Shown: in pieces, positions 13,574-25,316 of the stretch
Numbering within the stretch: the stretch's first letter is position 1
Layout of the letters: every line of letters begins with the position of its first letter
Origin: a virus
IMG/VR virus record: IMGVR_UViG_3300047455_000105
Location: 1-25,973 of that record
Length of the DNA stretch: 25,973 nt
Reading direction: 5' to 3' (one strand)
The notes under the pieces: generated by a model
Told to the model about the DNA's origin: nothing
The model's input: the letters and a program-made list of their open reading frames with translations, nothing else
The model's database searches: none
Made by a program: the position numbers and the translations under genes

Positions 13574-13766
13574 CTGCACCCCTCCGAACGTCTGGTTGCT
13601 GGTGGTGCAGTGAGTCGCCCATAGTGATGATCACGTCATCACACCTGAACTTAGCCTCGAACATATAACTGCCGTCCTTGGCATCTGACTCGACTGCTTC
13701 GCAGTAGCCAGCGTCCATGGCGTTCTGCACGTTGTCGAAATACAGCGTTGCTACAAACTGCTTCAT
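13557..13766 (-). CDS. Small hypothetical protein (69 aa)
   Basis: The ATG at 13766 is preceded by AAGGAGGG 4 nt upstream, which decides against a start at 13805 inside the nuclease gene. The protein reads MKQFVATLYFDNVQNAMDAG at its start, a strand followed by an amphipathic helix, then EAKFRCDDVIITMGDS, ending in a His/Gln/Arg/Asp-rich tail. The pattern resembles small single-domain alpha/beta phage proteins. No known family. The start overlaps the nuclease stop by 4 nt. Confidence 0.6.
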   Translation of the reverse strand: MKQFVATLYFDNVQNAMDAGYCEAVESDAKDGSYMFEAKFRCDDVIITMGDSLHHQQPDVRRGADANNP

Positions 13767-14263
13767 AATCCCTCCTTGATCTGCTTCTCTCGTAAACTTC
13801 TCCAAATTGCTTCAGGCTTCGCTAGGCTTGTCAGGTCAACGCACAGCTTTGTGCCGTACAGCTTTTCCTTCTCCTTGCACACGCTGGCAAAGTTCTCTCT
13901 GCGGATGCCTCCCTGCACCACAAGGTCGGAGCCTTTTTGGGTGACCAGAATGGCAACGTCAGCCCTGAAGCTATCGAGGCTGTCAAAGATCAACTCCTCG
14001 GTCTTAGTGAACTTCACGTCGATTGACGTGTCGCCAAACCAGAGGTCTTTGCCTTCGTCGCCCAGCACGTTGAACTTGGGCGGGTCGAGTCCGAACAGCT
14101 TCGCTACCGCAAACTCTGCGCGAGCGCCGCGAATCTCATTCTCATCTCGGCCATCCTCGCCCCTCGGGTTTGTGTTCTGCATCCGACAAATCTTCGTCGT
14201 GTCCCGTGCCAGCAAAAGTGCCTCGTGCTCTTCTCTGGGACTAAGGCGAACGCTAATTGCCAT
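13763..14263 (-). CDS. PD-(D/E)xK superfamily nuclease-like protein
   Basis: 166 aa. The sequence carries the order of the restriction-endonuclease-like fold: a helix with Glu50 (RGARAEFAVAKLFGL), then GDEGKDLWFGDTSIDVKFT, in which Asp73 is the first metal ligand and Asp82-x-Lys84 is the D-x-K half. 'E...G-D-x-G-x-D...G-x-x-I-D-V-K-x-T' is typical of small phage and resolvase-like members of this superfamily. It could process recombination intermediates alongside the Sak-type annealing protein, or degrade host DNA. The substrate is unknown. The start at 14263 has GGAGG 4 nt upstream, inside the last codons of the phosphoesterase gene, which it overlaps by 11 nt. Confidence 0.75.
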   Translation of the reverse strand: MAISVRLSPREEHEALLLARDTTKICRMQNTNPRGEDGRDENEIRGARAEFAVAKLFGLDPPKFNVLGDEGKDLWFGDTSIDVKFTKTEELIFDSLDSFRADVAILVTQKGSDLVVQGGIRRENFASVCKEKEKLYGTKLCVDLTSLAKPEAIWRSLREKQIKEGL

Positions 14264-15062
14264 ACTTCCTCCTCAGCCAATCGAGGCTCACTGGCATCAC
14301 GTCGAACTTGCCGTCCTGCACGTCATGCAATAACCAGACGCCAGACCATGTCTGCTCTGTGTTCGTCTGTGGCGTGAGGTAGCCCTCATCGTGCTGGTAG
14401 CAAATACCAAGGAACACGCCTGTGATGCTGGACCCGTCCGCCTTGTTGGCGAACGCTATGTCACGCTGTTGAACGTGGCCCATAACGAATGACTGGTGGC
14501 GCTTAGTCAGACCGATGCGTGCGCTACTCACTGGGCGTCCCATGGTTCCTGAAACGATGTAGTGGGCGTACACAACGCCATCGATGATGACTGGCACAAG
14601 GAACGGGTGAACCGTCCAGCCGTGCTCTTCGAGGTTGAAGTCATCGAATGACATCAGGGTCTCAAGTTGCGCGTCTGCGTCCACAGCTTTGACAATACGT
14701 TGCTCGTGGTTACCAAGGCAGAAGTGCATCTCAGGACGCCAGATCTTCTCCTTGTTCCTGCGGAGTCGTTCCTGCTCTTCCTGAATGGGGGCCATCAGCA
14801 TATCCATGGCCTTGTTGCCCCACTCGATGTCCTCCGCGTACCTGCGGCCCTCCATCTGGCGACTGCCTTTCTTGTCGTAACTCGACAGGCTAGGCATATC
14901 CCAATGATCGCCGATATGGATCAAAACCTGAGGCTTCATCTTGACGATGTAGCGGCCGATGTGGGTGAAGTGGTCTAGCGGTACATTTGGCTTTACCTGA
15001 GTGTCAGGTATCACCAAGTGTCTTCTCCCTATAGCGGCAGGAGTGGAAGTCGTAGGTTTCAT
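14253..15062 (-). CDS. Calcineurin-like metallophosphoesterase
   Basis: 269 aa from ATG at 15062 (AAGGA 4 nt upstream). The motifs of the binuclear metallophosphoesterase family are in order: HLVIPDTQVKP (Asp20), LIHIGDHWDMPS (GD around 51-52), FCLGNHEQRIV (Asn118-His119), AHYIV (His167) and VMGHVQQRD (His196). Phage enzymes of this group are common in replication modules and act on phosphodiesters or phosphomonoesters; the substrate is not predictable. The frame runs upstream through 85 low-complexity basic residues that overlap the HNH gene, and these were rejected. A TTG at 15017 preceded by GGGAG is an alternative start that would remove the remaining overlap almost completely. Confidence 0.85.
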   Translation of the reverse strand: MKPTTSTPAAIGRRHLVIPDTQVKPNVPLDHFTHIGRYIVKMKPQVLIHIGDHWDMPSLSSYDKKGSRQMEGRRYAEDIEWGNKAMDMLMAPIQEEQERLRRNKEKIWRPEMHFCLGNHEQRIVKAVDADAQLETLMSFDDFNLEEHGWTVHPFLVPVIIDGVVYAHYIVSGTMGRPVSSARIGLTKRHQSFVMGHVQQRDIAFANKADGSSITGVFLGICYQHDEGYLTPQTNTEQTWSGVWLLHDVQDGKFDVMPVSLDWLRRKYGN

Positions 15063-16220: not shown

Positions 16221-18108
16221 ACTTGTCACCGACACAGGCGGCTGTCTGCGCGCCCTCTGTCGTGTCCCCGCGCTCGTACTCAGGCAACTTGCTCCAGTCG
16301 ATGGGATCGATACACATCGAGCACTGGGTGTACTCGGCCAGATCAATCTCCTCGTAAGGTGCCTGCTTATAGCTGGAGCCTGAGTGCGGGAGGAACGACA
16401 TACCAATGAGGCTGTCGAAGTTCTTCCACATCCAGTCACACGCCTCGAACCACGTGTCATCCGTGTAATAAGCAGTACAGCTAACGGTGTGCGTGGCCCA
16501 GTGCTTGCCGTAGATGCGAGCCAACTCAAGCTGGTCGATGGTGCCGACTTGCTCGGTTGTCAGGCTGTGCTCTGGCGACTCGATGAAGAAGTCGAAGACC
16601 ACAGTGGTGGCTGGGTTCATTGCACAGGGCTCGTGCGGCACGCCTTGGTCGATCAGGAAGTCCGTCAATGGATCGTTTGTGCTCTGACGGATGCGGCGCA
16701 CGTAGTGCTTGCTGTAGCGTGGATGAATCCCACTGGACGCATCTACCAATTGGCTCACAGTGCCGCTCGGCTTCAACGTCGTTACAGAAGCTGACGTGCT
16801 GATACCGAACAGGTCGGCGTACTCAGCGTTAGCCTCCTCCGCGATGGTGCGAAGTTCCTCCAGCCACTTGGCTAGCTTCTCCTCGCCCTCCTGACCAGAC
16901 ATGACCTTGTGGTCACAGATGCCTGTCAGGCTGACACCCAGTAGAGCCTCATCTTCACAGTTGTCCTGCCAGACTTGGCGCAAGTATCGGAAGTTGGTCT
17001 GCGTTGCCTGCAACGTGCCTAAGATGGCCGCGATGCGTACCTTCTTCTTCAGCGATGCCAGCGTGTCCTTAGGACGGACCACAACCTCTGACAGATTGCA
17101 CATTTGCTGGGGTCGGAGCAGAATTTCCGCGCACGGGTTAGCTCCGAAATCGTGGTCTGGGTCGCGCTTGCCGTACTCAGCGATCTTCTTCTGAGCACCA
17201 CCACGATTGAACACGCCACGCTCACCAGAGTAAGACTCGTACAGAGACTTCATCTCGTTCTGGAAGACGTGGAAGTCAGGCTTGCCGTCGTACACAGCGC
17301 TGTTGTTAGCGAGCGCACGCTGGCCGTTAGCGTCATACCATGCGCCAGACTTACAGGCGCGCATACGATCATCTGACACGTTAGACAGACTGATCATGGC
17401 ACTGCGCCGCACACCGCCTACCACCACAGCCTCGCCAACCTTACACAGAAGGTCGTGAACCTCTAGGCTACTCAGCTTGCGTCCCTGTGCGTTGCGGAAC
17501 GTGTGCACAGTAAACTCGAACAGATCCACTAGCGGCTGTGGTCCGCTTGCGCGGCCCCCGAAGACTTTAAGCCTTGCACCCGCTGGACGTATTCTCGACA
17601 CGTCCCATGTGGGCTGGTGTCCTGAGAACAGGAGGGAGATAAGCTGACGCAATGCTGAAGCCCAGCCCTGCTTGCTGTCGGCCACAGTGATTACCGTGTC
17701 GCACTCGACGATATCGTCAGGCACTTCAGGTAGCTTGTTCACGTACTGGCGCTCGACTGAGTAACCTACGCCACAGCCACACATCAGCAAATAGAATGTC
17801 TCATCAAAAACGCGTGGATGATCTGCAACCGTGTAACAGCAGTTGAACGCGGCCGCGTTGTCCCGCTTCAGCGCTTCCCCTGCGCTCCACATAGCCCGCA
17901 TACTGGGCATAACGTCCATGTTAAGAATCGCTTTACGCGTCCCCTCATCGATCACACGGTCCATGAACATCATGGTGGTGTCATCGTCTTTGAAGTGCTG
18001 TAGGTAGCGATCTACAGTCTCCTCGAACGTCTCTCGACGTTCCGCATCGTCCAGCCATCTGGCATAGCGCGACTGGTGAATCAGGTGCTGGTAATCAGAA
18101 ATCTGCAA
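16207..18108 (-). CDS. Class II (adenosylcobalamin-dependent) ribonucleoside-triphosphate reductase
   Basis: 633 aa. It reduces ribonucleotides to deoxyribonucleotides for phage DNA synthesis without oxygen or an R2 subunit, using vitamin B12. All Cys positions known from the monomeric Lactobacillus-type enzyme are present with the same spacing: NCCY at 89-92 (reductive pair member), NPCAEIL with thiyl-radical Cys326 and Glu328, Cys337 eleven residues later (MCNLSEV), and a C-terminal Cys625-x4-Cys630 shuttle pair (CVGDKCELV). It is shorter than the ~740-aa bacterial enzyme, as is usual in phages. The start is TTG at 18108, with GGAG 7 nt upstream. It follows a 33-aa membrane ORF and is followed by a strong terminator. 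Confidence 0.93.
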   Translation of the reverse strand: MQISDYQHLIHQSRYARWLDDAERRETFEETVDRYLQHFKDDDTTMMFMDRVIDEGTRKAILNMDVMPSMRAMWSAGEALKRDNAAAFNCCYTVADHPRVFDETFYLLMCGCGVGYSVERQYVNKLPEVPDDIVECDTVITVADSKQGWASALRQLISLLFSGHQPTWDVSRIRPAGARLKVFGGRASGPQPLVDLFEFTVHTFRNAQGRKLSSLEVHDLLCKVGEAVVVGGVRRSAMISLSNVSDDRMRACKSGAWYDANGQRALANNSAVYDGKPDFHVFQNEMKSLYESYSGERGVFNRGGAQKKIAEYGKRDPDHDFGANPCAEILLRPQQMCNLSEVVVRPKDTLASLKKKVRIAAILGTLQATQTNFRYLRQVWQDNCEDEALLGVSLTGICDHKVMSGQEGEEKLAKWLEELRTIAEEANAEYADLFGISTSASVTTLKPSGTVSQLVDASSGIHPRYSKHYVRRIRQSTNDPLTDFLIDQGVPHEPCAMNPATTVVFDFFIESPEHSLTTEQVGTIDQLELARIYGKHWATHTVSCTAYYTDDTWFEACDWMWKNFDSLIGMSFLPHSGSSYKQAPYEEIDLAEYTQCSMCIDPIDWSKLPEYERGDTTEGAQTAACVGDKCELV

Positions 18109-18129
18109 CGTGTCTCTCCTCGACTGTTC

Positions 18130-18151
18130 AAAAAAATGCCAACGTCAGGCA
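18130..18151 (-). terminator. Weak hairpin plus T-tract upstream of the reductase gene
   Basis: On the minus strand TGCC-TGACGTT-GGCA is followed by seven T. The T run is good but the stem has only 4 bp. It lies between the 33-aa ORF and the reductase start and could attenuate transcription into the reductase gene. Low confidence. Confidence 0.25.
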
Positions 18152-18160
18152 CAGAAAGGC

Positions 18161-18262
18161 TCAGGAATTTTTCTCCTGCTTCCACTTTAGGTACTCAACG
18201 ATTGCGTAGCGTGTCGCTATGCCCCAAGCCAGAGCGGCTGTTGTGAGAATAAATAGTTCCAT
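18161..18262 (-). CDS. 33-aa putative membrane peptide upstream of the reductase
   Basis: The frame MELFILTTAALAWGIATRYA continues IVEYLKWKQEKNS and stops. It has one hydrophobic segment (residues 3-21) followed by a charged C-terminal helix. The ATG at 18262 has GGGAG 4 nt upstream. It overlaps the last 46 nt of the sigma-factor gene in another frame. Hydrophobicity, ribosome binding site and position in the only sizeable gap of this part of the operon support it. The family is unknown. Confidence 0.5.
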   Translation of the reverse strand: MELFILTTAALAWGIATRYAIVEYLKWKQEKNS

Positions 18263-18816
18263 TTGCTCCCTCTCATCTTGTCTCTAATTTTTCTCAAGGC
18301 CACACCGCGCTTGCCGCGAACCCATTCGCCGCTATAGCCCATGACCTCTCCTAGTTGCGCGTAGGTGTACTTGTCGCGCATTAGTGTTCTAACGATGTAT
18401 TCCTCGGTTGCGTCTAAGTAGCTAAACGCCTCCTCAAGAATCTCCTGCACATCGTAGTCAGGAGTCTCATCATCGACACAATTTCTTCCGTCTTCGTACT
18501 CAACCTCATCACCGATGTGTGGCTGTTTCTCCACAGACCGGATCATTTCCCAACGGATGTAGTTAGTCGCGTAGGTGGAGACCCTGAAGCCTTTCTCTGG
18601 ATCAAACTTCCTAAGCGACTTGATTAAGCCAATGATCCCGTCCTGCACCAATTCCTCAATCGGCACAGGCGTGATCATCTTGTTGGCTATCTTGTAGACC
18701 AAGCGAATGTTGTGCTTGACCATCTGCTCCAAGGATTTCTCGCACCCTGCCGCCATCTTCACGGCCAGCTTGTACTCCTCTTCCTTGCTGAGTAGTTCGT
18801 GGTGGGTGTCGTACAT
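18217..18816 (-). CDS. Phage-encoded sigma-70 family RNA polymerase sigma factor
   Basis: 199 aa. Region 2 is clear: KHNIRLVYKIANKM (34-47), then IEELVQDGIIGLIKSLRKFD (53-72) and FRVSTYATNYIRWEMIRSVE (77-96), matching the core-binding and -10-recognition helices of sigma-70 proteins. Region 4 is at about 133-181, with the helix-turn-helix TYAQLGEVMGYSGEWVRGKR for the -35 element. Regions 1.1 and 3 are missing; a short acidic linker (GDEVEYEDGR...) joins the two DNA-binding parts, so this is a minimal two-domain factor. It probably redirects host RNA polymerase to late or middle phage promoters. The RBS GGAG is 5 nt before the ATG. The neighbours are a helicase operon upstream and the reductase downstream. 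Confidence 0.9.
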   Translation of the reverse strand: MYDTHHELLSKEEEYKLAVKMAAGCEKSLEQMVKHNIRLVYKIANKMITPVPIEELVQDGIIGLIKSLRKFDPEKGFRVSTYATNYIRWEMIRSVEKQPHIGDEVEYEDGRNCVDDETPDYDVQEILEEAFSYLDATEEYIVRTLMRDKYTYAQLGEVMGYSGEWVRGKRGVALRKIRDKMRGSKWNYLFSQQPLWLGA

Positions 18817-18824
18817 ACAGACTC

Positions 18825-19151
18825 CTAGTGAATGGTTGCGTCCATCATCTTCATGTTCTCGATGGCTTCCTCGATGTTGCCCTCAGTAAACTCCTCACAG
18901 AGCCACTTGATAGCTTTCAGAGCGCCATCGTTGTCCATGGATGCGCCGACACACAGGTCGTACATCAACTCCATGATCATGGTCTCCGCGAGGTTGGCGC
19001 GGTGCCATCCAAGTGCATCGTCGTGGTCAAACTCGTGCAACAACATGGACGTGCCTTCCTGAATCTGACGCAAGGCAAACTCAAAGTGCTCGTCTTCCTT
19101 CTTCTTCTCTGCCTCGCGCTTCTCGACTGGAAAATCAATTACGTTGCTCAT
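18825..19151 (-). CDS. Hypothetical helical protein (108 aa)
   Basis: The ATG at 19151 overlaps the previous stop (ATGA), and CCTAAGGAGGG lies 11 nt upstream. The N-terminus MSNVIDFPVEKREAEKKKED resembles the 'x-x-V-I-D-F-P' opening seen in many small phage proteins. The rest is helical, with DHDDALGWHRANLAETMIME and a Met-rich end. No enzymatic motif. It directly precedes the sigma-factor gene, so a link to transcription control is possible, but only position suggests it. Confidence 0.65.
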   Translation of the reverse strand: MSNVIDFPVEKREAEKKKEDEHFEFALRQIQEGTSMLLHEFDHDDALGWHRANLAETMIMELMYDLCVGASMDNDGALKAIKWLCEEFTEGNIEEAIENMKMMDATIH

Positions 19152-19351
19152 AGCTTGAAAACCCTCCTTAGGTTGTGTTGCTCTAATTCGTTTAGCTTGC
19201 CTACCACTTCGGTAAGGCTGTACTGCTCCTTCCAAGGGAGTCCGTCTTGCTCATCGTCACGGGCTCGATCTCGGAAGTGCTGGTTGGCGTCTCGCTCGTT
19301 GTCAAACCAGACGGCTTTGTCGCCACAGGCGACTCGATAGAAGTCAGACAT
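19148..19351 (-). CDS. Small hypothetical protein (67 aa) overlapping the helicase 3' end
   Basis: The ATG at 19351 is preceded by the operon's signature leader CCTGAGGAGGG, 4 nt away, which strongly supports real translation even though 151 nt overlap the 3' end of the helicase gene in another frame. The protein begins MSDFYRVACGDKAVWFDNER and is a charged alpha/beta domain (DANQHFRDRARDDEQDGLPW, LTEVVGKLNELEQHNLRRVF). It has no known family. It is coupled by ATGA to the next gene. Confidence 0.65.
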   Translation of the reverse strand: MSDFYRVACGDKAVWFDNERDANQHFRDRARDDEQDGLPWKEQYSLTEVVGKLNELEQHNLRRVFKL

Positions 19352-20259
19352 TCGTCCCTCCTCAGGTCTATCGGTTGGTATTGGCGGTGGCGGTTGTTAC
19401 AGAGCACACGCGCCTTATCGGATTGGTATAGGCCCACAGTGCCTTGAAATGGCATGTACCTACTCTTAGCAACATTCAGCAGAAAATCTGGCTTGTCCCT
19501 GTCCCTGTCCTCCTTGTACATGTCGGGGTCTTTCCACAGCAGGAGCACTGAGGCACTAGCGTTTACTAAGTGACTACTGCCTAGCAGGTCTGCTTTGTTC
19601 GGTATATGGCGCTCGCCCTTGTCACCAGATGCCTTACGGACGTGGTGCACAAGGATCACAGCCATCTCTAGTTCACGTGCAAGCGTAGACAGGCGAGTGA
19701 TGAAAGCCTTCTCAGCTTCTAACTCGGTGCTCAGGTTGATCTGCATCAGACAGTCCAGCAGGAACACGTCACAGCCCAGCAGGGTTTTGGCCACACGGAT
19801 CATCTCGATAACGTCCACAGGCTCTAGCACCTGCGTGGTGTCAACAAAAAAGATCTTCTGGTTGGACCACTGGGCAAACTCCGACAGGTAAGACTCGTGC
19901 GGAGTAGGGACCACAGCGGCCTGCTCGGACATCATCTCGAATACGTAGTCAGCGGGCAGTTCCAAACTGGCTACGGCTACGCGCTTCCCACAGGATGCCG
20001 CGTGCACACACATCTGGTTTGCCATCGTTGACTTGTTCGATCCTGAGTAACCCCCAATGATGGTGATGCCACCACTGGGGATGCTGTACAGGCCGTGTAG
20101 CTTGCTCCATGGCACAGGGATACCAGTGTCACCCTTCTCCCTGCGCTCTACCGTGCGGCCCACCATCACAGACGGGTCCGCAAACTTGTCTAGGTACTGA
20201 TCCTGCAACCAACGCTCGTGCTCAAGGTCGGTCAGGTACACTACAGAATCGTTCCCCAT
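19201..20259 (-). CDS. DnaB-like/RecA-fold replicative helicase or ATPase
   Basis: 352 aa. The RecA/DnaB C-terminal ATPase core is visible: GGITIIGGYSGSNKSTMANQ carries the Walker A loop at 70-77 (GYSGSNKS, with Asn where GK is usual), Glu100 in ASLELPADYVFEMM matches the helicase 'E-[ML]-P' motif, LLGCDVFLLDCLMQI is Walker B (Asp169), VILVHHVRKA (201-210) is motif H3, and LLNVAKSRYMPFQG resembles motif H4. It has no primase domain and no full DnaB N-terminal domain, so it may be a stand-alone phage helicase needing another primase. The last ~60 residues are Ser/Thr/Pro-rich and overlap the next gene. The RBS is GGAGGAG about 8 nt upstream, inside the Cys-rich gene. Confidence 0.82.
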   Translation of the reverse strand: MGNDSVVYLTDLEHERWLQDQYLDKFADPSVMVGRTVERREKGDTGIPVPWSKLHGLYSIPSGGITIIGGYSGSNKSTMANQMCVHAASCGKRVAVASLELPADYVFEMMSEQAAVVPTPHESYLSEFAQWSNQKIFFVDTTQVLEPVDVIEMIRVAKTLLGCDVFLLDCLMQINLSTELEAEKAFITRLSTLARELEMAVILVHHVRKASGDKGERHIPNKADLLGSSHLVNASASVLLLWKDPDMYKEDRDRDKPDFLLNVAKSRYMPFQGTVGLYQSDKARVLCNNRHRQYQPIDLRRDECLTSIESPVATKPSGLTTSETPTSTSEIEPVTMSKTDSLGRSSTALPKW

Positions 20260-20489
20260 GTGATGCGCTCCTCCTCAGGCTCGTAATCGTCTCGGCTAAA
20301 CCACTCGTCACGTGACACCACAGGGCGTCTTATAGACGCACAGGGCTCACACATGCCGCGCACTAGATGGCCGTGCTCCTTCGCGCCTGTCGGGCAGTAG
20401 CGATTGGCACAGCGGTTAGGTGGGACAACGTCCCCGTAGTAATGGGCGTCAGGGATATCCCAGCGCCACGCTATGGACTCGTAACTCAT
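20241..20489 (-). CDS. Small putative zinc-binding protein (82 aa)
   Basis: The ATG at 20489 is 8 nt from GGAGG and overlaps the previous stop (ATGA), which decides against the ATG at 20504. Residues 27-50 (RCANRYCPTGAKEHG..., then RGMCEPC) give Cys-x4-Cys-x14-Cys-x2-Cys, a plausible zinc ribbon. The C-terminal EPEEERITWGTIL is encoded by DNA that also carries the helicase ribosome binding site. Coupling to the helicase (19-nt overlap) suggests a replication accessory role, for example DNA or primer recognition, but that is inference. Confidence 0.6.
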   Translation of the reverse strand: MSYESIAWRWDIPDAHYYGDVVPPNRCANRYCPTGAKEHGHLVRGMCEPCASIRRPVVSRDEWFSRDDYEPEEERITWGTIL

Positions 20490-20752
20490 GCGCCTGTCCT
20501 CCATACCTCGTACACAGGGAACTCTGGCTCCTCTGGCTCGCCGTTGATGATGGCGTCAACCAGTGCGCGCAGATCGTCCTCGCCCATGGATGGGCTGTAA
20601 CCAAACTCGACAACAAAATCCTGCAACTCTCCAATGCTCATGTAAGGCACCTCGCTGTTCAAAATATCGCAAAACTCAGGCATGACTAGGCCGCGTTTAT
20701 CGCGGCGCTGATAGTGATAATTTAGCTTGTCCCTGTAGGCTCTAGTGGTCAT
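20486..20752 (-). CDS. Hypothetical protein (88 aa)
   Basis: The ATG at 20752 is preferred over an opening at 20806 because it leaves an 11-nt instead of a 65-nt overlap with the CsrA-like gene; the Shine-Dalgarno sequence is weak (GGGTG). The protein begins MTTRAYRDKLNYHYQRRDKR (basic helix) and continues with an acidic helical part (SIGELQDFVVEFGYSPSMGE, LRALVDAIINGEPEEPEF). No family recognised. Confidence 0.55.
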   Translation of the reverse strand: MTTRAYRDKLNYHYQRRDKRGLVMPEFCDILNSEVPYMSIGELQDFVVEFGYSPSMGEDDLRALVDAIINGEPEEPEFPVYEVWRTGA

Positions 20753-20969
20753 CACGCACCCGATTGATTGGGATGCTACGCGGAGCCTCGAAAGATAACT
20801 CCACACGGTACTTGCCCAACTCCTTAACAGTCACAAACACGTCACTGGCTATCTGTACGGTCTCGCCCTCAGACAGCATTAGTTTAAGATTGCCCACAGG
20901 CGTGGGCTTGTCTTGCTTCTTCATGGTTAGATACTCAGGGTTGCGGTGCTCAAAGGTAGTGTACCTCAT
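20742..20969 (-). CDS. CsrA-like RNA-binding regulator
   Basis: 75 aa from ATG at 20969 (GGAGG 7 nt upstream, ATGA overlap with the previous gene). Residues 30-73 follow the CsrA fold closely: LMLSEGETVQIASDVFVTVK then YRVELSFEAPRSIPINRVRD, compared with 'L-T-R-x-x-G-E-x-x-x-I-G-x-x-V-x-V-T-V...V-R-I-G-x-x-A-P-x-x-x-x-V-x-R' of the family. Arg70 matches the RNA-binding Arg44 of E. coli CsrA, but the N-terminal RNA-contacting Arg pair is replaced (Leu32-Ser33). A 27-residue N-terminal extension precedes the domain. CsrA dimers bind GGA motifs overlapping ribosome binding sites and alter translation. Here it could control phage or host messages. Confidence 0.72.
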   Translation of the reverse strand: MRYTTFEHRNPEYLTMKKQDKPTPVGNLKLMLSEGETVQIASDVFVTVKELGKYRVELSFEAPRSIPINRVRDDH

Positions 20970-21190
20970 GCGATAACCTCCTCGGGGGCTCTCCACTTGC
21001 GTAAAACGCGGTTGTAGGTCTCCTCCACATGGCGGCGCACACGGAACGTGACTTCTGGCCACTTGTCGTGCAGAGCCTCTGCCGCATCCTCAGCGGCGTC
21101 ATACTCAGCGTGCTCGCCCAGTGACAGGTACTGTTGCTTCTCGCTGTCCCACAGGTCAACGTGATAGGTGGTCTTATAGCTGTCGTACAT
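20966..21190 (-). CDS. Small hypothetical protein (74 aa)
   Basis: The ATG at 21190 follows the signature leader CCTGAGGAGGG by 6 nt. The protein starts with a beta hairpin-like MYDSYKTTYHVDLWDSEKQQ and continues with an acidic helix (EYDAAEDAAEALHDKWPEVT) and a basic end (RVRRHVEETYNRVLRKWRAP). It looks like a compact beta-alpha phage protein. No family assigned. Its stop overlaps the CsrA-like start. Confidence 0.65.
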   Translation of the reverse strand: MYDSYKTTYHVDLWDSEKQQYLSLGEHAEYDAAEDAAEALHDKWPEVTFRVRRHVEETYNRVLRKWRAPEEVIA

Positions 21191-21396
21191 TATTTACCCT
21201 CCTCAGGTGTCAGTGCTTCGATTGCGATCTCCAGCCCACGTATGACGCCGTCGATCCGTTTTATTTTGCCCATGACCACAGCGGCTTGACCGCTGGGGGT
21301 GATGGACTCGTAGTACTCGCGCAGGCTCTCAAGCGCTGTCACAGCGACAGAGCGTTGCCACGTAAGAACCTCCACAGGGTTACTTATGTCTCTCAC
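21190..21396 (-). CDS. Small helical hypothetical protein (68 aa)
   Basis: The GTG at 21396 is 6 nt after CCTGAGGAGGG. The protein is essentially two amphipathic helices (VEVLTWQRSVAVTALESLRE, KIKRIDGVIRGLEIAIEALT) and would pair as a coiled coil. It ends PEEGK, encoded by the leader motif of the next gene. No family is recognised, though two-helix proteins of this size are common in phage early operons. Confidence 0.62.
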   Translation of the reverse strand: MRDISNPVEVLTWQRSVAVTALESLREYYESITPSGQAAVVMGKIKRIDGVIRGLEIAIEALTPEEGK

Positions 21397-21398
21397 TA

Positions 21399-21632
21399 TT
21401 ACCCCTCCTCAGGCTGGTTGCCGTCATCGTCAGAGCCCGACACTTGGACCACAATGGTCTTGGTCAGCTTGATGATGCGGTGGTTAAAGTCAGGGTCGTT
21501 AGACATCTCTGCGCCCAGCTTTGACACAGCGTTGCGGTACTGGCCGTACATGATCCCGTCAACGTCCATCCATTCGCCACCTAAGTGGCTCTCGTACTGG
21601 ACCATATAAACTGCTTCGTTGTAGTTACTCAT
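21399..21632 (-). CDS. Small hypothetical protein (77 aa)
   Basis: The ATG at 21632 follows CCTGAGGAGGG by 6 nt. The protein opens MSNYNEAVYMVQYESHLGGE, has WMDVDGIMYGQYRNAVSKLG, an RIIKLTKTIVVQVSGS strand and an acidic tail ending PEEG. The layout is typical of small phage proteins with a single alpha/beta domain. No family assigned. The tail codons double as the ribosome binding region of the next gene. Confidence 0.65.
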   Translation of the reverse strand: MSNYNEAVYMVQYESHLGGEWMDVDGIMYGQYRNAVSKLGAEMSNDPDFNHRIIKLTKTIVVQVSGSDDDGNQPEEG

Positions 21633-21649
21633 TGCTTACCCTCCTCAGG

Positions 21650-22006
21650 TTATTGCCCGTAGACGCCAAGCCACTTCAGGAAGTCCGCCAGAGCGTCTCC
21701 CGTGATGCACTTGTAGTCGTTGTCGCGGTGGCTCCAGATGCGGATCAGGCGTTTACTGCCAAGGCCCGTGTATTCCCACACAGCGCCTGTGCGGTCACTG
21801 TCCATGTACGCCTGCGCCATATCGAGCGCGTCCTCCTTGGTGTGGAACCACTCCTCGTGGTCGCCGTTGATCTGATAGCCAAGGGCAGTGTGACAGGACA
21901 CAATCCAGCCCCTGTCCTCGTGTTGCCACACGTGTGTCTGTGGCCAGTAGTCGAGATACTCAGGCGCAATGGGCCTGCTCATGCTCCAGTTAAGTGCGAT
22001 AGTCAT
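21650..22006 (-). CDS. Hypothetical protein (118 aa)
   Basis: The ATG at 22006 follows CCTGTGGAGGG by 3 nt, and the leader itself starts right after the upstream TAA. The protein is rich in Trp, His, Tyr and Asp (YWPQTHVWQHEDRGWIVSCH, TKEDALDMAQAYMDSDRTGA, RIWSHRDNDYKCITGDALAD). Without a recognised motif it can only be called a soluble, aromatic-rich small protein. Confidence 0.65.
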   Translation of the reverse strand: MTIALNWSMSRPIAPEYLDYWPQTHVWQHEDRGWIVSCHTALGYQINGDHEEWFHTKEDALDMAQAYMDSDRTGAVWEYTGLGSKRLIRIWSHRDNDYKCITGDALADFLKWLGVYGQ

Positions 22007-22020
22007 AATCCCTCCACAGG

Positions 22021-22206
22021 TTATCGGGGCGACACTCTGCCGCCCTGAACGATCTTGATGGTCATGCCGCTTCGCTTCTTAGCCTCAGCGATTTTGTGCG
22101 GCACACGATTGGCCCAGCCCGTTTTTTTCTTGGGCTTCTCTTTTATGCCGCTCTCCTCCTGTCGCGCTTTCATCTGCGCGATGGCGTGCTTTGTCCAGCT
22201 ATCCAT
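22021..22206 (-). CDS. Small basic protein (61 aa)
   Basis: The ATG at 22206 follows CCTGAGGAGGG by 3 nt; that motif contains the stop codon of the upstream gene. The protein is strongly basic (ARQEESGIKEKPKKKTGWAN, HKIAEAKKRSGMTIKIVQGG) and could bind nucleic acid. No known family. Confidence 0.6.
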   Translation of the reverse strand: MDSWTKHAIAQMKARQEESGIKEKPKKKTGWANRVPHKIAEAKKRSGMTIKIVQGGRVSPR

Positions 22207-22215
22207 AGTCCCTCC

Positions 22216-22740
22216 TCAGGCGTTAGCGATGTCTTTCAGTTGTGCTTGTGTCCACTCACAGGAGCCATCCTTGTCCCACAGCGTGTCTACGTCATACACA
22301 CACAGGTTGTCCGACAGGTGGCGCGGCAGGCGGTCAGTCTCGATCCACACGTCCCGCTTGACGTAGAAGCCCGTCATGTGGCCAAGGCCAGCGGGCGAGA
22401 TCAGCCCAGTGCCTTCACCCTCAGCGGGAACGCTGGTGATCAGGTAGCGGGTCGCGCCCAGTCGCACGATGTCGCTCTCTAGCGAATCGCGCAGACCTTC
22501 GCGCTCGCCGTAGCACACAGTCAGGCGGCGTGCAGGGTGCTGGCCCAATTCCATCCAGCGCTCTACCTTGGCTTCATCCTCGTGCCAGTCATCATCAGCA
22601 GTCAGGGCGCGCAGTTCATCCCACACAGCCTCGCTGTCGGCCGTGGTGTAGCCGTCAGCCTCAATGGCGTTAATCTCGCGTTGCACAGAGTCAAACTGGC
22701 GAGACAGATAAGCGTTTACGTTGTCGGTGGTGATAGTCAT
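22216..22740 (-). CDS. Hypothetical protein (174 aa)
   Basis: The ATG at 22740 follows CCTGTGGAGGG by 6 nt. The N-terminal half is helical and acidic (AYLSRQFDSVQREINAIEAD, ADDDWHEDEAKVERWMELGQ), and the C-terminal half is more beta-like (LTVCYGEREGLRDSLESDIV, GFYVKRDVWIETDRLPRHLS). No catalytic motif recognised. It ends with a TGA that lies inside the leader of the next gene. Confidence 0.65.
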   Translation of the reverse strand: MTITTDNVNAYLSRQFDSVQREINAIEADGYTTADSEAVWDELRALTADDDWHEDEAKVERWMELGQHPARRLTVCYGEREGLRDSLESDIVRLGATRYLITSVPAEGEGTGLISPAGLGHMTGFYVKRDVWIETDRLPRHLSDNLCVYDVDTLWDKDGSCEWTQAQLKDIANA

Positions 22741-22763
22741 AAAGTTCCCTCCACAGGAATGGT

Positions 22764-22777
22764 GGGGCGTTAGCCCC
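22764..22777 (-). other. GC hairpin with a stop codon in its loop
   Basis: GGGGC-GTTA-GCCCC is a perfect 5-bp GC stem. The loop contains the TAA stop of the gene ending at 22770. No T-tract follows on either strand, so it is not a classical terminator. It could limit readthrough, protect mRNA 3' ends, or separate translation of neighbouring genes. Confidence 0.35.
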
Positions 22778-22976
22778 GCTTTGATGTCATAGGTCTCATG
22801 TAGCGCTCTTCAGTGAGCGGCACACGCTTGCGCTCGCCAGTGGCGTAGATAATGTGCATCCACTTGCGCCCGCGCTTGATGATGCAGGCGACTCGACAGC
22901 CGCCCACATTGGTCTTGTACAGGACTGGCTCCCAGCCCCTGTTTACCGCCTTGCGATAGGTTAGTGCGCCTCTCAT
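22770..22976 (-). CDS. Small basic hypothetical protein (68 aa)
   Basis: The ATG at 22976 is 4 nt from GGAGG and overlaps the previous stop (ATGA); an opening at 23003 was rejected. The protein reads MRGALTYRKAVNRGWEPVLY, then CRVACIIKRGRKWMHIIYAT and GERKRVPLTEERYMRP. It is a basic, beta-rich domain that could bind nucleic acid. No family assigned. Confidence 0.6.
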   Translation of the reverse strand: MRGALTYRKAVNRGWEPVLYKTNVGGCRVACIIKRGRKWMHIIYATGERKRVPLTEERYMRPMTSKRG

Positions 22977-23437
22977 GCCGCCTCCCGTGGGACAAATTCC
23001 CACACAGTGTGTGTGCGCTTGCGCCTGCCCTCAGCCCAGTCAGAGGTTTGGCCGTTAGACCAGCCCATCGTGTGGCCGCGCTGGTTGATCACTAGCCGCT
23101 GGTGCGGCTGGATCTTGCGCTGTGCCGTGACGATGGTCGCGCCGTAGCGCTTGCGCGCGTCTGCACGGCTGACCGTGTGCATGTACAGGCCGCGTTGCTT
23201 GGCCATGTCCAGACAGGCGCGCTTCCAGCGTGACCACGAGGGGCCACGGCCGTGCGGGCGTCCGTGTTTGGCCATGTGCACATAGGCCGTGATGCGATGC
23301 AGGCCGAACGTGTCGCCAAGGGCGCGCACAGTGCAGTTGTTGTTGTCGCGATAGGCGGGATGGCTGGCCACCATGGCCGCGCCGTGTACCGCATGAATGT
23401 GCCACAGCAAAACGTGGCAGTCGTGTTGCCTTCTCAT
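22973..23437 (-). CDS. Hypothetical protein with cysteine-peptidase-like residue pattern (154 aa)
   Basis: The ATG at 23437 follows CCTGTGGAGGG by 3 nt. Residues 31-40 (DNNNCTVRAL) put Cys35 at the head of a helix in the manner of papain-like phage proteins ('D/N-C-x-V-R-A-L/I'). Later GHTMGWSNGQTSDWA gives His122, and Asp133 after a short hairpin, the usual His-...-G-...-Asp spacing of that fold. The middle is basic (KHGRPHGRGPSWSRWKRACL). A small papain-fold or C39-like domain is therefore plausible; enzyme activity is not demonstrated. Phage members of this group are poorly characterised. Confidence 0.55.
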   Translation of the reverse strand: MRRQHDCHVLLWHIHAVHGAAMVASHPAYRDNNNCTVRALGDTFGLHRITAYVHMAKHGRPHGRGPSWSRWKRACLDMAKQRGLYMHTVSRADARKRYGATIVTAQRKIQPHQRLVINQRGHTMGWSNGQTSDWAEGRRKRTHTVWEFVPREAA

Positions 23438-23460
23438 AAGCCCTCCACAGGTGAGAAAGT

Positions 23461-23574
23461 TTAGAAGGTGCGGTGCTTGTTACCCCGCACACGTTTGGTT
23501 GCTTTCTTGCGATCCTTGAACACGTGCGCCTTGTTGAACTGGCGCGCATGTTTGGCCACTAGATTGTTTTTCAT
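23461..23574 (-). CDS. Short basic conserved-type phage protein (37 aa)
   Basis: The frame MKNNLVAKHARQFNKAHVFK continues DRKKATKRVRGNKHRTF and stops. It has ATG at 23574, GGAGG 4 nt upstream, and an ATGA overlap with the previous gene. The pattern 'M-K-N-x-V-A-K-x-x-x-x-F-N-K-A-x-x-x-x-D-R-K-K' is one I recognise from many small phage proteins of unknown function. It is very basic (11 Lys/Arg in the last 22 residues) and may bind nucleic acid. Confidence 0.75.
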   Translation of the reverse strand: MKNNLVAKHARQFNKAHVFKDRKKATKRVRGNKHRTF

Positions 23575-23975
23575 GCCGCCTCCTGTGCGCGTTGCTCTAG
23601 TTCCTCGATGCGGTCAGTAACGGCCGCGTGGATGTGACCCTGCCAGATGAAATAGGCAAGTTGGGTCATATAGGTATCGAGGTTCTCGAACACAAAGCCA
23701 CACTCGGCCACACGTTGCTCGGCTTCGTCTACCTCTTCGGAAAACCACTGTTGCATGAACTGCACAACTTTGTAGTTGTCGCTGGTATAGATAGCCTCGC
23801 GATCAGCCGCCTCATAAATGGCATCAACACAGTCATCCTTCAACTGATCCCAGTCGCCGTTAAACTCGCCATCTGATTGCATGGTCTCGCCGACAATCTC
23901 GTGAGCGTGGTTAGTGACAGCGTTCTGAAACTCGACACGGTAAGCAATAAACTCTTTTTGATCTAACTTAAACAT
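23571..23975 (-). CDS. First gene of the leftward operon; hypothetical acidic protein (134 aa)
   Basis: The ATG at 23975 follows CCTGTGGAGGG by 7 nt; a GTG at 23990 lies inside that motif and is unlikely. The protein is helical and acidic: MFKLDQKEFIAYRVEFQNAV, DWDQLKDDCVDAIYEAADRE, QWFSEEVDEAEQRVAECGFV and TDRIEELEQRAQEA. There is no known domain. As the most promoter-proximal leftward gene it should be expressed earliest, suggesting a host-interaction or regulatory role. Confidence 0.65.
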   Translation of the reverse strand: MFKLDQKEFIAYRVEFQNAVTNHAHEIVGETMQSDGEFNGDWDQLKDDCVDAIYEAADREAIYTSDNYKVVQFMQQWFSEEVDEAEQRVAECGFVFENLDTYMTQLAYFIWQGHIHAAVTDRIEELEQRAQEAA

Positions 23976-24014
23976 ATTGAAACCCTCCACAGGTCATAGG
24001 TTGTATGTACAGCG

Positions 24015-24038
24015 TAAAACGGCCACAGAGCCGTTTTA
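24015..24038. terminator. 9-bp bidirectional hairpin before the first leftward gene
   Basis: TAAAACGGC-CACAGA-GCCGTTTTA is a perfect 9-bp stem with a 6-nt loop and A/T ends, terminator-like on both strands, though the T run is only four long. It lies 40 nt upstream of the first leftward start codon, so it would sit within the leader of that transcript. Confidence 0.45.
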
Positions 24039-24264
24039 AGATGCACACACTTTGGCCAGCCTGACGGTGCGAACCTCGCCCGCTCCGCGTGCTGTGCTTA
24101 TGGTGTTTGATGGGGACCGCTGAACCACGACACCCCACACCAGACAGCCGTTAGGAACTGCACTCTCGCTACCGCGTCAGTGCTGGCCGTGTGTGAATCA
24201 AACTGCTCGGCGTTTGCGTTGCTAATGCTTGCGCCGTGCTCCGCGTTGGATAAGCGGACCCCGC

Positions 24265-24281
24265 CAACCGCTGTGCGGTTG
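24265..24281. repeat. Perfect inverted repeat CAACCGC-TGT-GCGGTTG
   Basis: 7-bp stem with a 3-nt loop in the non-coding region. It is compatible with an RNA hairpin or a protein site; no T-tract follows. Confidence 0.5.
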
Positions 24282-24317
24282 CTCGCTAGGCTCTCTCAGG
24301 TCAAACCAGACTGTCGC

Positions 24318-24333
24318 CGCCAGACATCTGGCG
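24318..24333. repeat. Perfect inverted repeat CGCCAGA-CA-TCTGGCG
   Basis: 7-bp palindrome with a 2-nt centre. Such a short centre suits a dimeric DNA-binding protein better than an RNA hairpin, so it is an operator or replication-initiator candidate. Confidence 0.5.
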
Positions 24334-24490
24334 TAGTGCTAAGGCTCAAAGTAAGGGGCGTCACGTCCAAATCAGGGAGCCGTACAGCCTGACAAGGTGA
24401 GGCAATAGCCGTTGCTTGATCAGGGAGCGGCGCGCCACCTACGCGCCTGCAAGCACTAACCCACGCTTGCTAAGTCTGCCCAGCCGCCGT

Positions 24491-24504
24491 GCGGGATGTC
24501 CCGC
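24491..24504. repeat. Perfect inverted repeat GCGGGA-TG-TCCCGC
   Basis: 6-bp palindrome with a 2-nt centre in the non-coding region. Candidate protein-binding site of the same type as 24318-24333. Confidence 0.45.
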
Positions 24505-24518
24505 GCTTTGACTATCAG

Positions 24519-24544
24519 CAAAAAGCCCTGTGTTTGACTGGGCT
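24519..24544 (-). terminator. Leftward terminator-like hairpin
   Basis: On the minus strand AGCCC, an 11-nt loop and GGGCT are followed by TTTTG. The 5-bp stem is short but GC-rich and has a T run. It could terminate or attenuate leftward transcription within the leader region. Confidence 0.35.
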
Positions 24545-24688
24545 ACCGATCGCCCGCCTCTGACCGCTCGGCGGGGGGTTCTCAGGCGGCGCGCTAGGCG
24601 CACCGCATCGGCACTACTATGACGCCTGTGCGAGCGATTTGTTCCCCAACCTGAGCAAAAAAATGCAAAAAAGATTTCAAAACAAGCC

Positions 24689-24713
24689 GAAACCCGCGCA
24701 AACACTGGGTTTC
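24689..24713. repeat. Inverted repeat GAAACCC-N11-GGGTTTC
   Basis: 7-bp perfect arms separated by 11 bp, about one helical turn, next to the A-tract DNA and about 90 bp upstream of the repressor start. The spacing fits a two-site operator for a dimer as well as an RNA hairpin. Confidence 0.45.
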
Positions 24714-24799
24714 TGGGCATAAAAAATATTCGTATCTTTGTGGTGACATGTAACGCATACTTCTCATTCATTGGCGAAACATTGAACTGAGGCACCACC

Positions 24800-25159
24800 A
24801 TGGCATCACGTAAGACACTGAGAGAGATCGTAGCCCGCAATATACGGCTGGTGATGGAAGAGCATGACCTAAACACCAGAGAGGTCCAGAAGCGCTCTGG
24901 CGTCCCTCAGAGGACCGTACATAGCGTTGTAAACAATCAGTCGGCCCCAACCCTTACCACTATCGAAAAGCTCTGTAGCGCGCTCCTGATAAGCCCTGTG
25001 GCGCTCATGGTTGAAGGCGCGCCCATGTCCGTCCTGCAATCACGCCGCACCCGCTGGCTACTGGGCGAGTATGCCCGCATGACCCCACTCGAACGGCAGA
25101 AGGTGGAGGACGCCGTACTAGCCATTGGTGATGGCGTGGTGCCAGAGATTGCCCCCTGA
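24800..25159 (+). CDS. Cro/C1-type HTH transcriptional regulator (candidate lysogeny repressor)
   Basis: 119 aa. An XRE-type helix-turn-helix lies at about 10-62: NIRLVMEEHDLNTREVQKRS, then GVPQRTVHSVVNNQSAPTLT and TIEKLCSALLISPVALM, with recognition helix PQRTVHSVVNN. The C-terminal part (RTRWLLGEYARMTPLERQKV...) is a short helical extension and not an S24 LexA-like peptidase domain, so induction by self-cleavage is unlikely. The start has GAGG 8 nt upstream. It is transcribed away from the early operon, as expected for a phage repressor gene, and is separated from that operon by the 800-bp region. The likely operator is the palindrome at 25322-25341 or sites in that region. Confidence 0.82.
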   Translation: MASRKTLREIVARNIRLVMEEHDLNTREVQKRSGVPQRTVHSVVNNQSAPTLTTIEKLCSALLISPVALMVEGAPMSVLQSRRTRWLLGEYARMTPLERQKVEDAVLAIGDGVVPEIAP

Positions 25160-25316
25160 TTGAACGATTTTTCTTGACTTTGGCAATATATCGCTAGGAG
25201 GCTCTCAATCGCTCTCTAAGCAACGCTAGCTGTACCCTATGCCGTAGGTCTCGTGTGTTCATAAAATTGCTAATCTATATTCTATGCGGGTTTCAGCCTG
25301 ATCAAATGAGAATGAG

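What the first reader, a model, noticed from the sequence alone, without database searches (positions are those of the whole stretch)
19162..23993. An 11-base leader CCTG(A/T)GGAGGG is conserved across ten early genes regardless of its coding role
The motif precedes ten starts (one differing at the final base). In three cases it encodes Pro-Glu-Glu at the end of the upstream protein, in one it encodes Leu-Arg-Arg-Asp inside the helicase, in one it contains the upstream stop codon, and elsewhere it is non-coding. Selection therefore acts on the nucleotides. Conservation of the 5' CCTG, beyond what anti-Shine-Dalgarno pairing needs, suggests an RNA-level signal. Each copy contains GGA, the core of CsrA-type sites, and the phage encodes a CsrA-like protein.
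Basis: partly seen in the sequence, partly recalled or inferred. Interest (0 to 1): 0.8.

Follow-up and report, generated by a model that had tools for sequence, protein, structure and literature searches.

The report
Repeated early-gene translation-start element in phage
A bacterial virus places the same 11-letter signal, which includes the ribosome-binding site, in front of about eleven unrelated early genes, and distant relatives that also carry a CsrA-like gene use matching small RNA hairpins there, so the virus may switch its early genes off together at translation.

Summary
Nine exact CCTGWGGAGGG copies lie in 4.6 kb, all on the minus strand, against 0.03 expected. Each sits 3-7 nt before a start codon, and two one-mismatch copies bring the starts to eleven. 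Neither the genes nor the flanks are related, so this is not gene duplication.

The exact CCTG word is private to this phage: 0 of 284 start sites in 26 csrA-lacking relatives have even CCTNNGGAGG. The conserved feature seems to be the Shine-Dalgarno held in a tiny hairpin, CCU[RWGG]AGG. Two distant relatives have their own versions: GCCT[AAGG]AGGC five times in L018, and GCCCT/AGGGC, ATCCT/AGGAT and ACCT/AGGT in L046. Compensatory arm changes exceed shuffles. All three hairpin-rich phages carry a divergent CsrA-like gene just upstream of the helicase. csrA-bearing phages lie at five separate places on the helicase tree.

Best reading: a translational operator, probably for the phage CsrA-like protein, mechanistically like RsmA on psl mRNA and T4 RegA. 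The closest known element is the Start-Associated Sequence of cluster K mycobacteriophages. Protein binding is untested, and two csrA+ relatives and three unrelated csrA+ phages show little or no such pattern.

The parts
23983..23993 (-). leader copy CCTGTGGAGGG before gene 23571-23975
   Evidence: exact match
23441..23451 (-). leader copy CCTGTGGAGGG before gene 22973-23437
   Evidence: exact match
22747..22757 (-). leader copy CCTGTGGAGGG before gene 22216-22740
   Evidence: exact match
22210..22220 (-). leader copy CCTGAGGAGGG before gene 22021-22206; contains the upstream TGA stop
   Evidence: exact match
22010..22020 (-). leader copy CCTGTGGAGGG before gene 21650-22006
   Evidence: exact match
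21639..21649 (-). leader copy CCTGAGGAGGG before gene 21399-21632
   Evidence: exact match
21403..21413 (-). leader copy CCTGAGGAGGG before the GTG start of gene 21190-21396; codes PEE of the upstream protein
   Evidence: exact match
21197..21207 (-). leader copy CCTGAGGAGGG before gene 20966-21190; codes PEE of the upstream protein
   Evidence: exact match
20269..20279 (-). leader copy CCTGAGGAGGA (last base differs) before the helicase gene
   Evidence: one mismatch
19356..19366 (-). leader copy CCTGAGGAGGG inside the helicase 3' end, before gene 19148-19351; codes LRRD
   Evidence: exact match
19162..19172 (-). eleventh copy, CCTAAGGAGGG, before gene 18825-19151
   Evidence: one mismatch
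20742..20969 (-). CsrA-like protein gene, 75 aa
   Evidence: Pfam CsrA 1.8e-6, above cut-off; profile of five orthologues matches solved CsrA/RsmE chains at 2e-6; the L037 orthologue's model ranks CsrA structures first
19201..20259 (-). DnaB-like helicase, the anchor gene used to find relatives
   Evidence: Pfam DnaB_C 1.3e-12; orthologues at 42-48%
14267..14277 (-). degenerate copy GCTGAGGAGGA before gene 13763-14263, outside the reported cluster
   Evidence: two mismatches

Best explanation
The leader is a repeated cis-acting translational operator of the phage's early operon. In the mRNA the 5' CCU can pair with the AGG of the same Shine-Dalgarno and form a weak mini-hairpin, CCU[GWGG]AGG; alternatively CC pairs with GG around a loop holding GWGGA(G). 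The ribosome can open this unaided, so early genes are translated at first. As the phage's own CsrA-like protein accumulates, it binds the GGA-bearing loops, stabilises them or covers the Shine-Dalgarno, and turns down many early genes at once. This resembles RsmA on pslA mRNA and, in role, T4 RegA. Shown: the repeat, its placement, nucleotide-level constraint, compensatory pairing in relatives, and co-occurrence with a csrA-like gene. Inferred: that the hairpin forms in the window's own mRNA, that the CsrA-like protein binds it, that the effect is repression, and the timing.
For: Copies and chance level. No shared flanks and no convincing paralogy. CCTNNGGAGG at the Shine-Dalgarno: 19 of 65 start sites in five csrA+ loci, 0 of 284 in 26 csrA- loci. 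Early sites with at least 3 pairs: 24/57 in csrA+ against 5/131 in csrA-. Re-dealing the 3' arms of csrA+ sites reaches 24 with p=0.0002; without the window, at least 4 pairs: 8/42 against 2.7 expected, p=0.0005. On 24 leaders chosen only for CTNNGGAG, the covariation score is 0.149 against a shuffled mean of 0.056 (0/500 shuffles), and slid partners score lower; the second outer pair occurs as GC, CG, AU and UA. In the four csrA+ relatives the two outer pairs give p=0.006 and 0.001; in csrA- leaders there is no excess. Orthologous genes in L046 and L018 keep the pairing through a C-G to U-A change (ACCT[AAGG]AGGT, TCT[AAGG]AGA). GGAG sites inside genes: 0/188 with this hairpin against 9/76 at starts in csrA+ loci. 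csrA+ loci sit at five separate places on the helicase tree, and L021, in the sister group of L018, lacks both csrA and the hairpins. The csrA-like genes lie within one or two genes upstream of the helicase in all five. The window protein keeps the residues matching E. coli CsrA L4 and (ungapped reading) R44. RsmA stabilising a weak SD/anti-SD hairpin is published (PMC7652899).
Against: No binding or expression data exist. Within the window the arms are invariant, so they cannot show covariation, and the individual hairpins are weak (about -2.7 to -6 kcal/mol) and mostly within shuffled values. The window loop is GWGGA, lacking the A of ANGGA, and in the best pairing the A of GGA is in the stem; pairing of GGA lowers RsmE affinity (PMC7652899). 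Two csrA+ relatives (L028, L037) have hardly any such leaders. Three unrelated csrA+ phages have none or few (3/26, 1/48, 0/15). csrA- relatives show a mild excess of other GGAG-loop hairpins. The csrA gene's own leader is a poor match. In the csrA+ relatives R44 is replaced by His. Contigs are fragments, so csrA absence is not proven for each phage.
Confidence: 0.5

Rival explanations
1. The mini-hairpin works without any dedicated protein. It slightly hides each Shine-Dalgarno so that translation depends on the upstream ribosome or on ribosome supply, giving translational coupling along the operon; csrA is incidental.
For: Several copies overlap the end of the upstream gene, including one containing its stop, as coupling would need. 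Pairing covaries. Loosely similar Shine-Dalgarno hairpins are mildly enriched in csrA- relatives. Cluster K phage Anaya has analogous leaders and no CsrA match.
Against: Five of eleven copies are in non-coding gaps. The window's hairpins are weak. This does not explain why the CCU[NNGG]AGG form appears only in csrA+ phages at separate places on the tree.
Confidence: 0.22
2. The leaders are sites for some other RNA-binding factor, for example the host's CsrA/RsmA or an unknown phage protein or small RNA; the phage csrA-like gene acts elsewhere, for instance on host mRNAs.
For: Some csrA- relatives hold the Shine-Dalgarno in ANGGAN hexaloops like classical CsrA sites, for example L033 GTCAT[AAGGAG]ATGAC and L019 GATCAT[ATGGAG]ATGATT. 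csrA in unrelated phages comes without such leaders.
Against: The co-occurrence of csrA with the CCU hairpin. The host is unknown, so host CsrA could not be examined.
Confidence: 0.17
3. It is only a strong ribosome-binding site that became uniform in one phage by drift or by the shuffling of gene cassettes, with no regulatory meaning.
For: Its core AGGAGG is a near-perfect Shine-Dalgarno; the exact word is private to this phage.
Against: CCTG and the final G do not pair with the 16S tail (established aSD sequence). Four copies have T instead of the useful A. There is no homology outside the 11 nt and no convincing gene paralogy. Independent versions with compensating arms occur in relatives.
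Confidence: 0.09
4. It is a DNA-level site (stoperator-like operator or recombination linker) that happens to overlap the Shine-Dalgarno.
For: Repeated, one orientation, confined to the early operon.
Against: Placed at the Shine-Dalgarno a few nt before start codons in all eleven counted copies; arm changes in relatives compensate as single-strand pairs.
Confidence: 0.02

Closest known systems
Start-Associated Sequences (SAS) of cluster K mycobacteriophages, GGGATAGGAGCCC (Pope et al. 2011, PMC3203893)
   Same: Short asymmetric repeat, 11-19 copies, a few nt before starts of non-structural genes, contains the Shine-Dalgarno, conserved beyond rRNA pairing, outer bases symmetric (GGGN7CCC; here CCTGWGGAGGG with CC...GG), almost always one orientation, rare in other genomes, function unknown.
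   Different: Different sequence and unrelated phage. SAS are shared across a cluster, this word is private to one phage. No CsrA match in SAS phage Anaya. No extended-SAS inverted repeats were noticed here. SAS show no arm compensation in Anaya.
RsmA/CsrA repression of pslA mRNA (reviewed in PMC7652899)
   Same: A weak Shine-Dalgarno/anti-Shine-Dalgarno hairpin whose loop is a CsrA-family site; stabilising it blocks the ribosome.
   Different: Here the hairpin is minimal and repeated at about eleven genes, in a phage, with a GWGGA rather than ANGGA core; binding unproven.
T4 RegA translational repressor (PMC3014915)
   Same: Small phage-encoded RNA-binding protein that switches off many early genes at their start regions; the same role is proposed here.
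   Different: RegA is not a CsrA homologue (own knowledge); its sites are AU-rich, unstructured and poorly conserved (PMC3014915).
csrA genes of other phages (F116, VvAW1, Vibrio 219E41.1; survey in PMC7366521)
   Same: Phage-borne CsrA family proteins.
   Different: Those are close to bacterial CsrA/RsmA (57-65% to E. coli CsrA), and their genomes lack repeated Shine-Dalgarno hairpin leaders.

Membership tests
Start-Associated Sequence (as a class of element) | multi-copy short repeat directly before start codons, overlapping the Shine-Dalgarno | tested here: met
   11 copies, 3-10 nt before starts
Start-Associated Sequence (as a class of element) | restricted to non-structural genes, one orientation | tested here: met
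   all counted copies minus strand, 19162-23993; none among structural genes
Start-Associated Sequence (as a class of element) | consensus GGGATAGGAGCCC in a cluster K phage | tested here: not met
   sequence differs; the best phage matches are not cluster K phages
CsrA protein family (PF02599) | score above the Pfam gathering cut-off | tested here: met
   28.2 bits against 27; orthologues L018 and L037 fall below the cut-off, but the joint profile hits CsrA chains at 2e-6
CsrA protein family (PF02599) | RNA-contact residues L4 and R44 | tested here: inconclusive
   L4 equivalent kept in all; R44 equivalent is R in the window (ungapped reading) but H in the four relatives
CsrA protein family (PF02599) | CsrA fold | tested here: inconclusive
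   the L037 orthologue model ranks CsrA structures first but weakly (best E 5e-3, prob 1.0); the window model is low confidence (pLDDT 66)
CsrA protein family (PF02599) | homodimer that binds RNA | not testable with these tools
   needs biochemistry
Classical CsrA binding site | GGA in a hairpin loop of a short stem (4 or fewer pairs typical) | tested here: inconclusive
   possible in alternative pairings, but in the commonest predicted one the A of GGA is paired
Classical CsrA binding site | ANGGA core | tested here: not met
   the window has GWGGA (only the 19162 copy has AAGGA); L018 and L046 do have A[AT]GGA

The most novel reading that the evidence does not exclude
A family of uncultured phages uses a phage-encoded, diverged CsrA as a dedicated early-gene translational repressor. 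Its operator, a Shine-Dalgarno in a mini-hairpin, has been copied by selection to many unrelated genes and re-invented with different arms in each phage. The still unexplained start-associated sequences of other phages would be operators of the same general kind.
Probability: 0.35. Interest if true: 0.8.

Novelty: new variant of a known kind. Interest (0 to 1): 0.62.

Why it matters
Repeated start-associated sequences have been known in mycobacteriophages since 2011 without a function or a binding partner. This case offers one: a phage regulon at the level of translation, with a candidate protein encoded in the same operon and relatives that show which part of the leader is conserved (the pairing rather than the exact letters). 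If the CsrA-like protein binds these leaders, it would be a RegA-like early shut-off built from a bacterial regulator family, and it would tell people how to read similar leaders elsewhere.

Tried and rejected
Close relatives through the helicase or CsrA protein alone: none found; the ribonucleotide reductase scan and a helicase alignment worked. Prophage copies in genome contigs: none. The window's CsrA-like protein in named phages: no match; the L037 orthologue: no match. Gene duplication as the source of the repeat: rejected. The exact word as a common phage leader: 80 other viral contigs with one copy before ATG were fetched; only one has a second. Known RNA family: no Rfam match in 18000-25000. 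General rule that csrA phages have such leaders: rejected with VvAW1, F116 and 219E41.1. CsrA as a partner of cluster K SAS: no Pfam CsrA in Anaya. A hairpin in the window judged by energy alone: not significant. L028 leaders share a TAAC...TACGGAG look that I did not pursue statistically. Promoter-like sites in the region: none by the sigma-70 consensus.
Full report
Setting. The window is a 25,973-base virus record of unknown host. Structural genes are on the plus strand; the early/replication operon is on the minus strand and includes a DnaB-type helicase, a sigma-70-like protein and a class II ribonucleotide reductase. There is also an integrase. A cI-like regulator at 24800-25159 reads the other way, so the phage is probably temperate.

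Observation. CCTGWGGAGGG occurs nine times exactly, always on the minus strand, within 19356-23993, against 0.03 expected. Two one-mismatch copies (20269, 19162) also precede starts. There is almost no similarity beyond the 11 bases, and the proteins are not convincing paralogues. Position 5 is T in four of the five non-coding copies and A in all six copies that overlap upstream coding sequence or its stop; that is my own count. The motif belongs to the first 5 kb of the operon; starts at 23574, 22976, 20969 and 20489 lack it.

Relatives. The reductase and then an alignment of six helicases brought in about 30 related contigs. None has CCTGWGGAGG. The gene after the helicase has an orthologue in most; its leader inside the helicase end is AACTTGGAGG, TTTAAAGGAGG, TTTATCGGAGG and so on. 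The window has CCTGAGGAGGG there, with the protein changed to LRRD, so the leader was probably gained in this lineage at some cost to the protein.

What recurs. L018 has GCCTAAGGAGGC before five genes. L046, found through its CsrA-like gene, has CAGCCCTAAGGAGGGCA, CATCCTAAGGAGGATA and CACCTAAGGAGGTAC before three genes and CCTATGGAGG before a fourth. Read as RNA these are perfect mini-hairpins around the same core, arm-CU[AAGG]AG-arm, with different but complementary arms. The window's word is the three-pair version CCU[GWGG]AGG, and its conserved last G can pair with the first C in a second register.

Statistics. After a simple gene call, CCTNNGGAGG is present at 19 of 65 start sites in the five csrA+ loci and 0 of 284 in the others (sites are not independent). 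Restricted to early regions, stems of three or more pairs: 24/57 against 5/131; re-dealing 3' arms in csrA+ loci gives p=0.0002, in csrA- loci p=0.63. Leaving the window out, four or more pairs: 8/42 against 2.7, p=0.0005; with duplicate leaders removed 6/39 against 2.0, p=0.004. For 24 leaders selected only by the inner CT...AG, the covariation score and the share of paired cells exceed all 500 shuffles, and partners slid by one to three columns do worse on both. The tool warns that relatedness inflates shuffle tests. The window's copies contribute no covariation, because their arms do not vary, and their folding energy is ordinary.

The CsrA-like protein. Window gene 20742-20969 scores above the Pfam CsrA cut-off. 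L018, L028, L037 and L046 have orthologues shortly upstream of the helicase. Their joint profile finds solved CsrA/RsmE chains at 2e-6, and the L037 model ranks CsrA structures first, though with weak E-values; the window model itself is low confidence. The residue matching L4 is kept; R44 is kept in the window by an ungapped reading, and is His in the relatives. The sequence is far from the csrA genes known in isolated phages, which resemble bacterial CsrA.

Association. Among loci with at least eight early Shine-Dalgarno sites, hairpin-rich leaders occur in 3 of 5 csrA+ and 0 of 9 csrA- loci (my Fisher arithmetic, p about 0.03). csrA absence was checked on the whole records with the family's own profile, but the records are fragments. 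On the helicase tree csrA+ loci need five changes and are not clustered; the hairpin-rich window, L018 and L046 are far apart, and L021, in the sister group of L018, has neither feature. L046 and L018 orthologues keep the pairing through a C-G to U-A change. Against this, L028 and L037 have csrA and few such leaders, and unrelated csrA phages show none or few. In csrA- relatives there is a mild excess of hairpins that put the Shine-Dalgarno in five- or six-base loops, some of them ANGGAN like textbook CsrA sites. That leaves room for host CsrA or for hairpins alone.

Mechanism. Published work gives a direct precedent: RsmA stabilises a weak hairpin between the Shine-Dalgarno and its anti-sequence in pslA mRNA and so blocks ribosomes, and selected CsrA sites mostly have four or fewer pairs (PMC7652899). 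I therefore favour a phage CsrA-like early-gene repressor with a repeated operator, at about even odds. That the leader is an RNA-level translation element is considerably surer (about 0.8).

Comparison with the known. Start-Associated Sequences of cluster K mycobacteriophages (PMC3203893) are the same kind of element: repeated, at starts of non-structural genes, conserved beyond rRNA pairing, symmetric outer bases, function and partner unknown. The window's element is not one of them by sequence or lineage, and Anaya has no CsrA match. T4 RegA (PMC3014915) is the functional analogue. Hence: a new variant of a known kind.

Noticed in passing
window 23461-23574 (-); also L018 1637, L028 1610, L037 5289, L046 about 1710: A 37-aa very basic peptide (MKNNLVAKHARQFNKAHVFKDRKKATKRVRGNKHRTF) is conserved across these phages and sits directly upstream of csrA in L028 and L037; function unknown.
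   Followed up: no
L033 9107, L022 2655, L019 1578, L023 2109, L015 1404: Relatives without a detectable csrA hold some early Shine-Dalgarno sequences in stem-hexaloops of ANGGAN type, like classical CsrA sites.
   Followed up: partly
L028 171-1300: Early leaders of this csrA+ relative share a different look, TAAC..TACGGAG, possibly another private leader.
   Followed up: no
window 21368-21378 (-): A CCTGTGGAGGT copy lies inside coding sequence about 20 nt downstream of the GTG start at 21396 and precedes no gene; it codes Pro-Val-Glu.
   Followed up: no
window 18217-18816 (-): A sigma-70-like protein (regions 2 and 4) is encoded right after the leader-bearing genes, and no sigma-70 consensus promoter was found in 18000-25300; transcription may use its own factor.
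   Followed up: no
window 19162-23993 (-): Position 5 of the motif is T in 4 of 5 non-coding copies and A in all 6 copies overlapping upstream coding sequence, so the one free position seems set by coding needs.
   Followed up: partly
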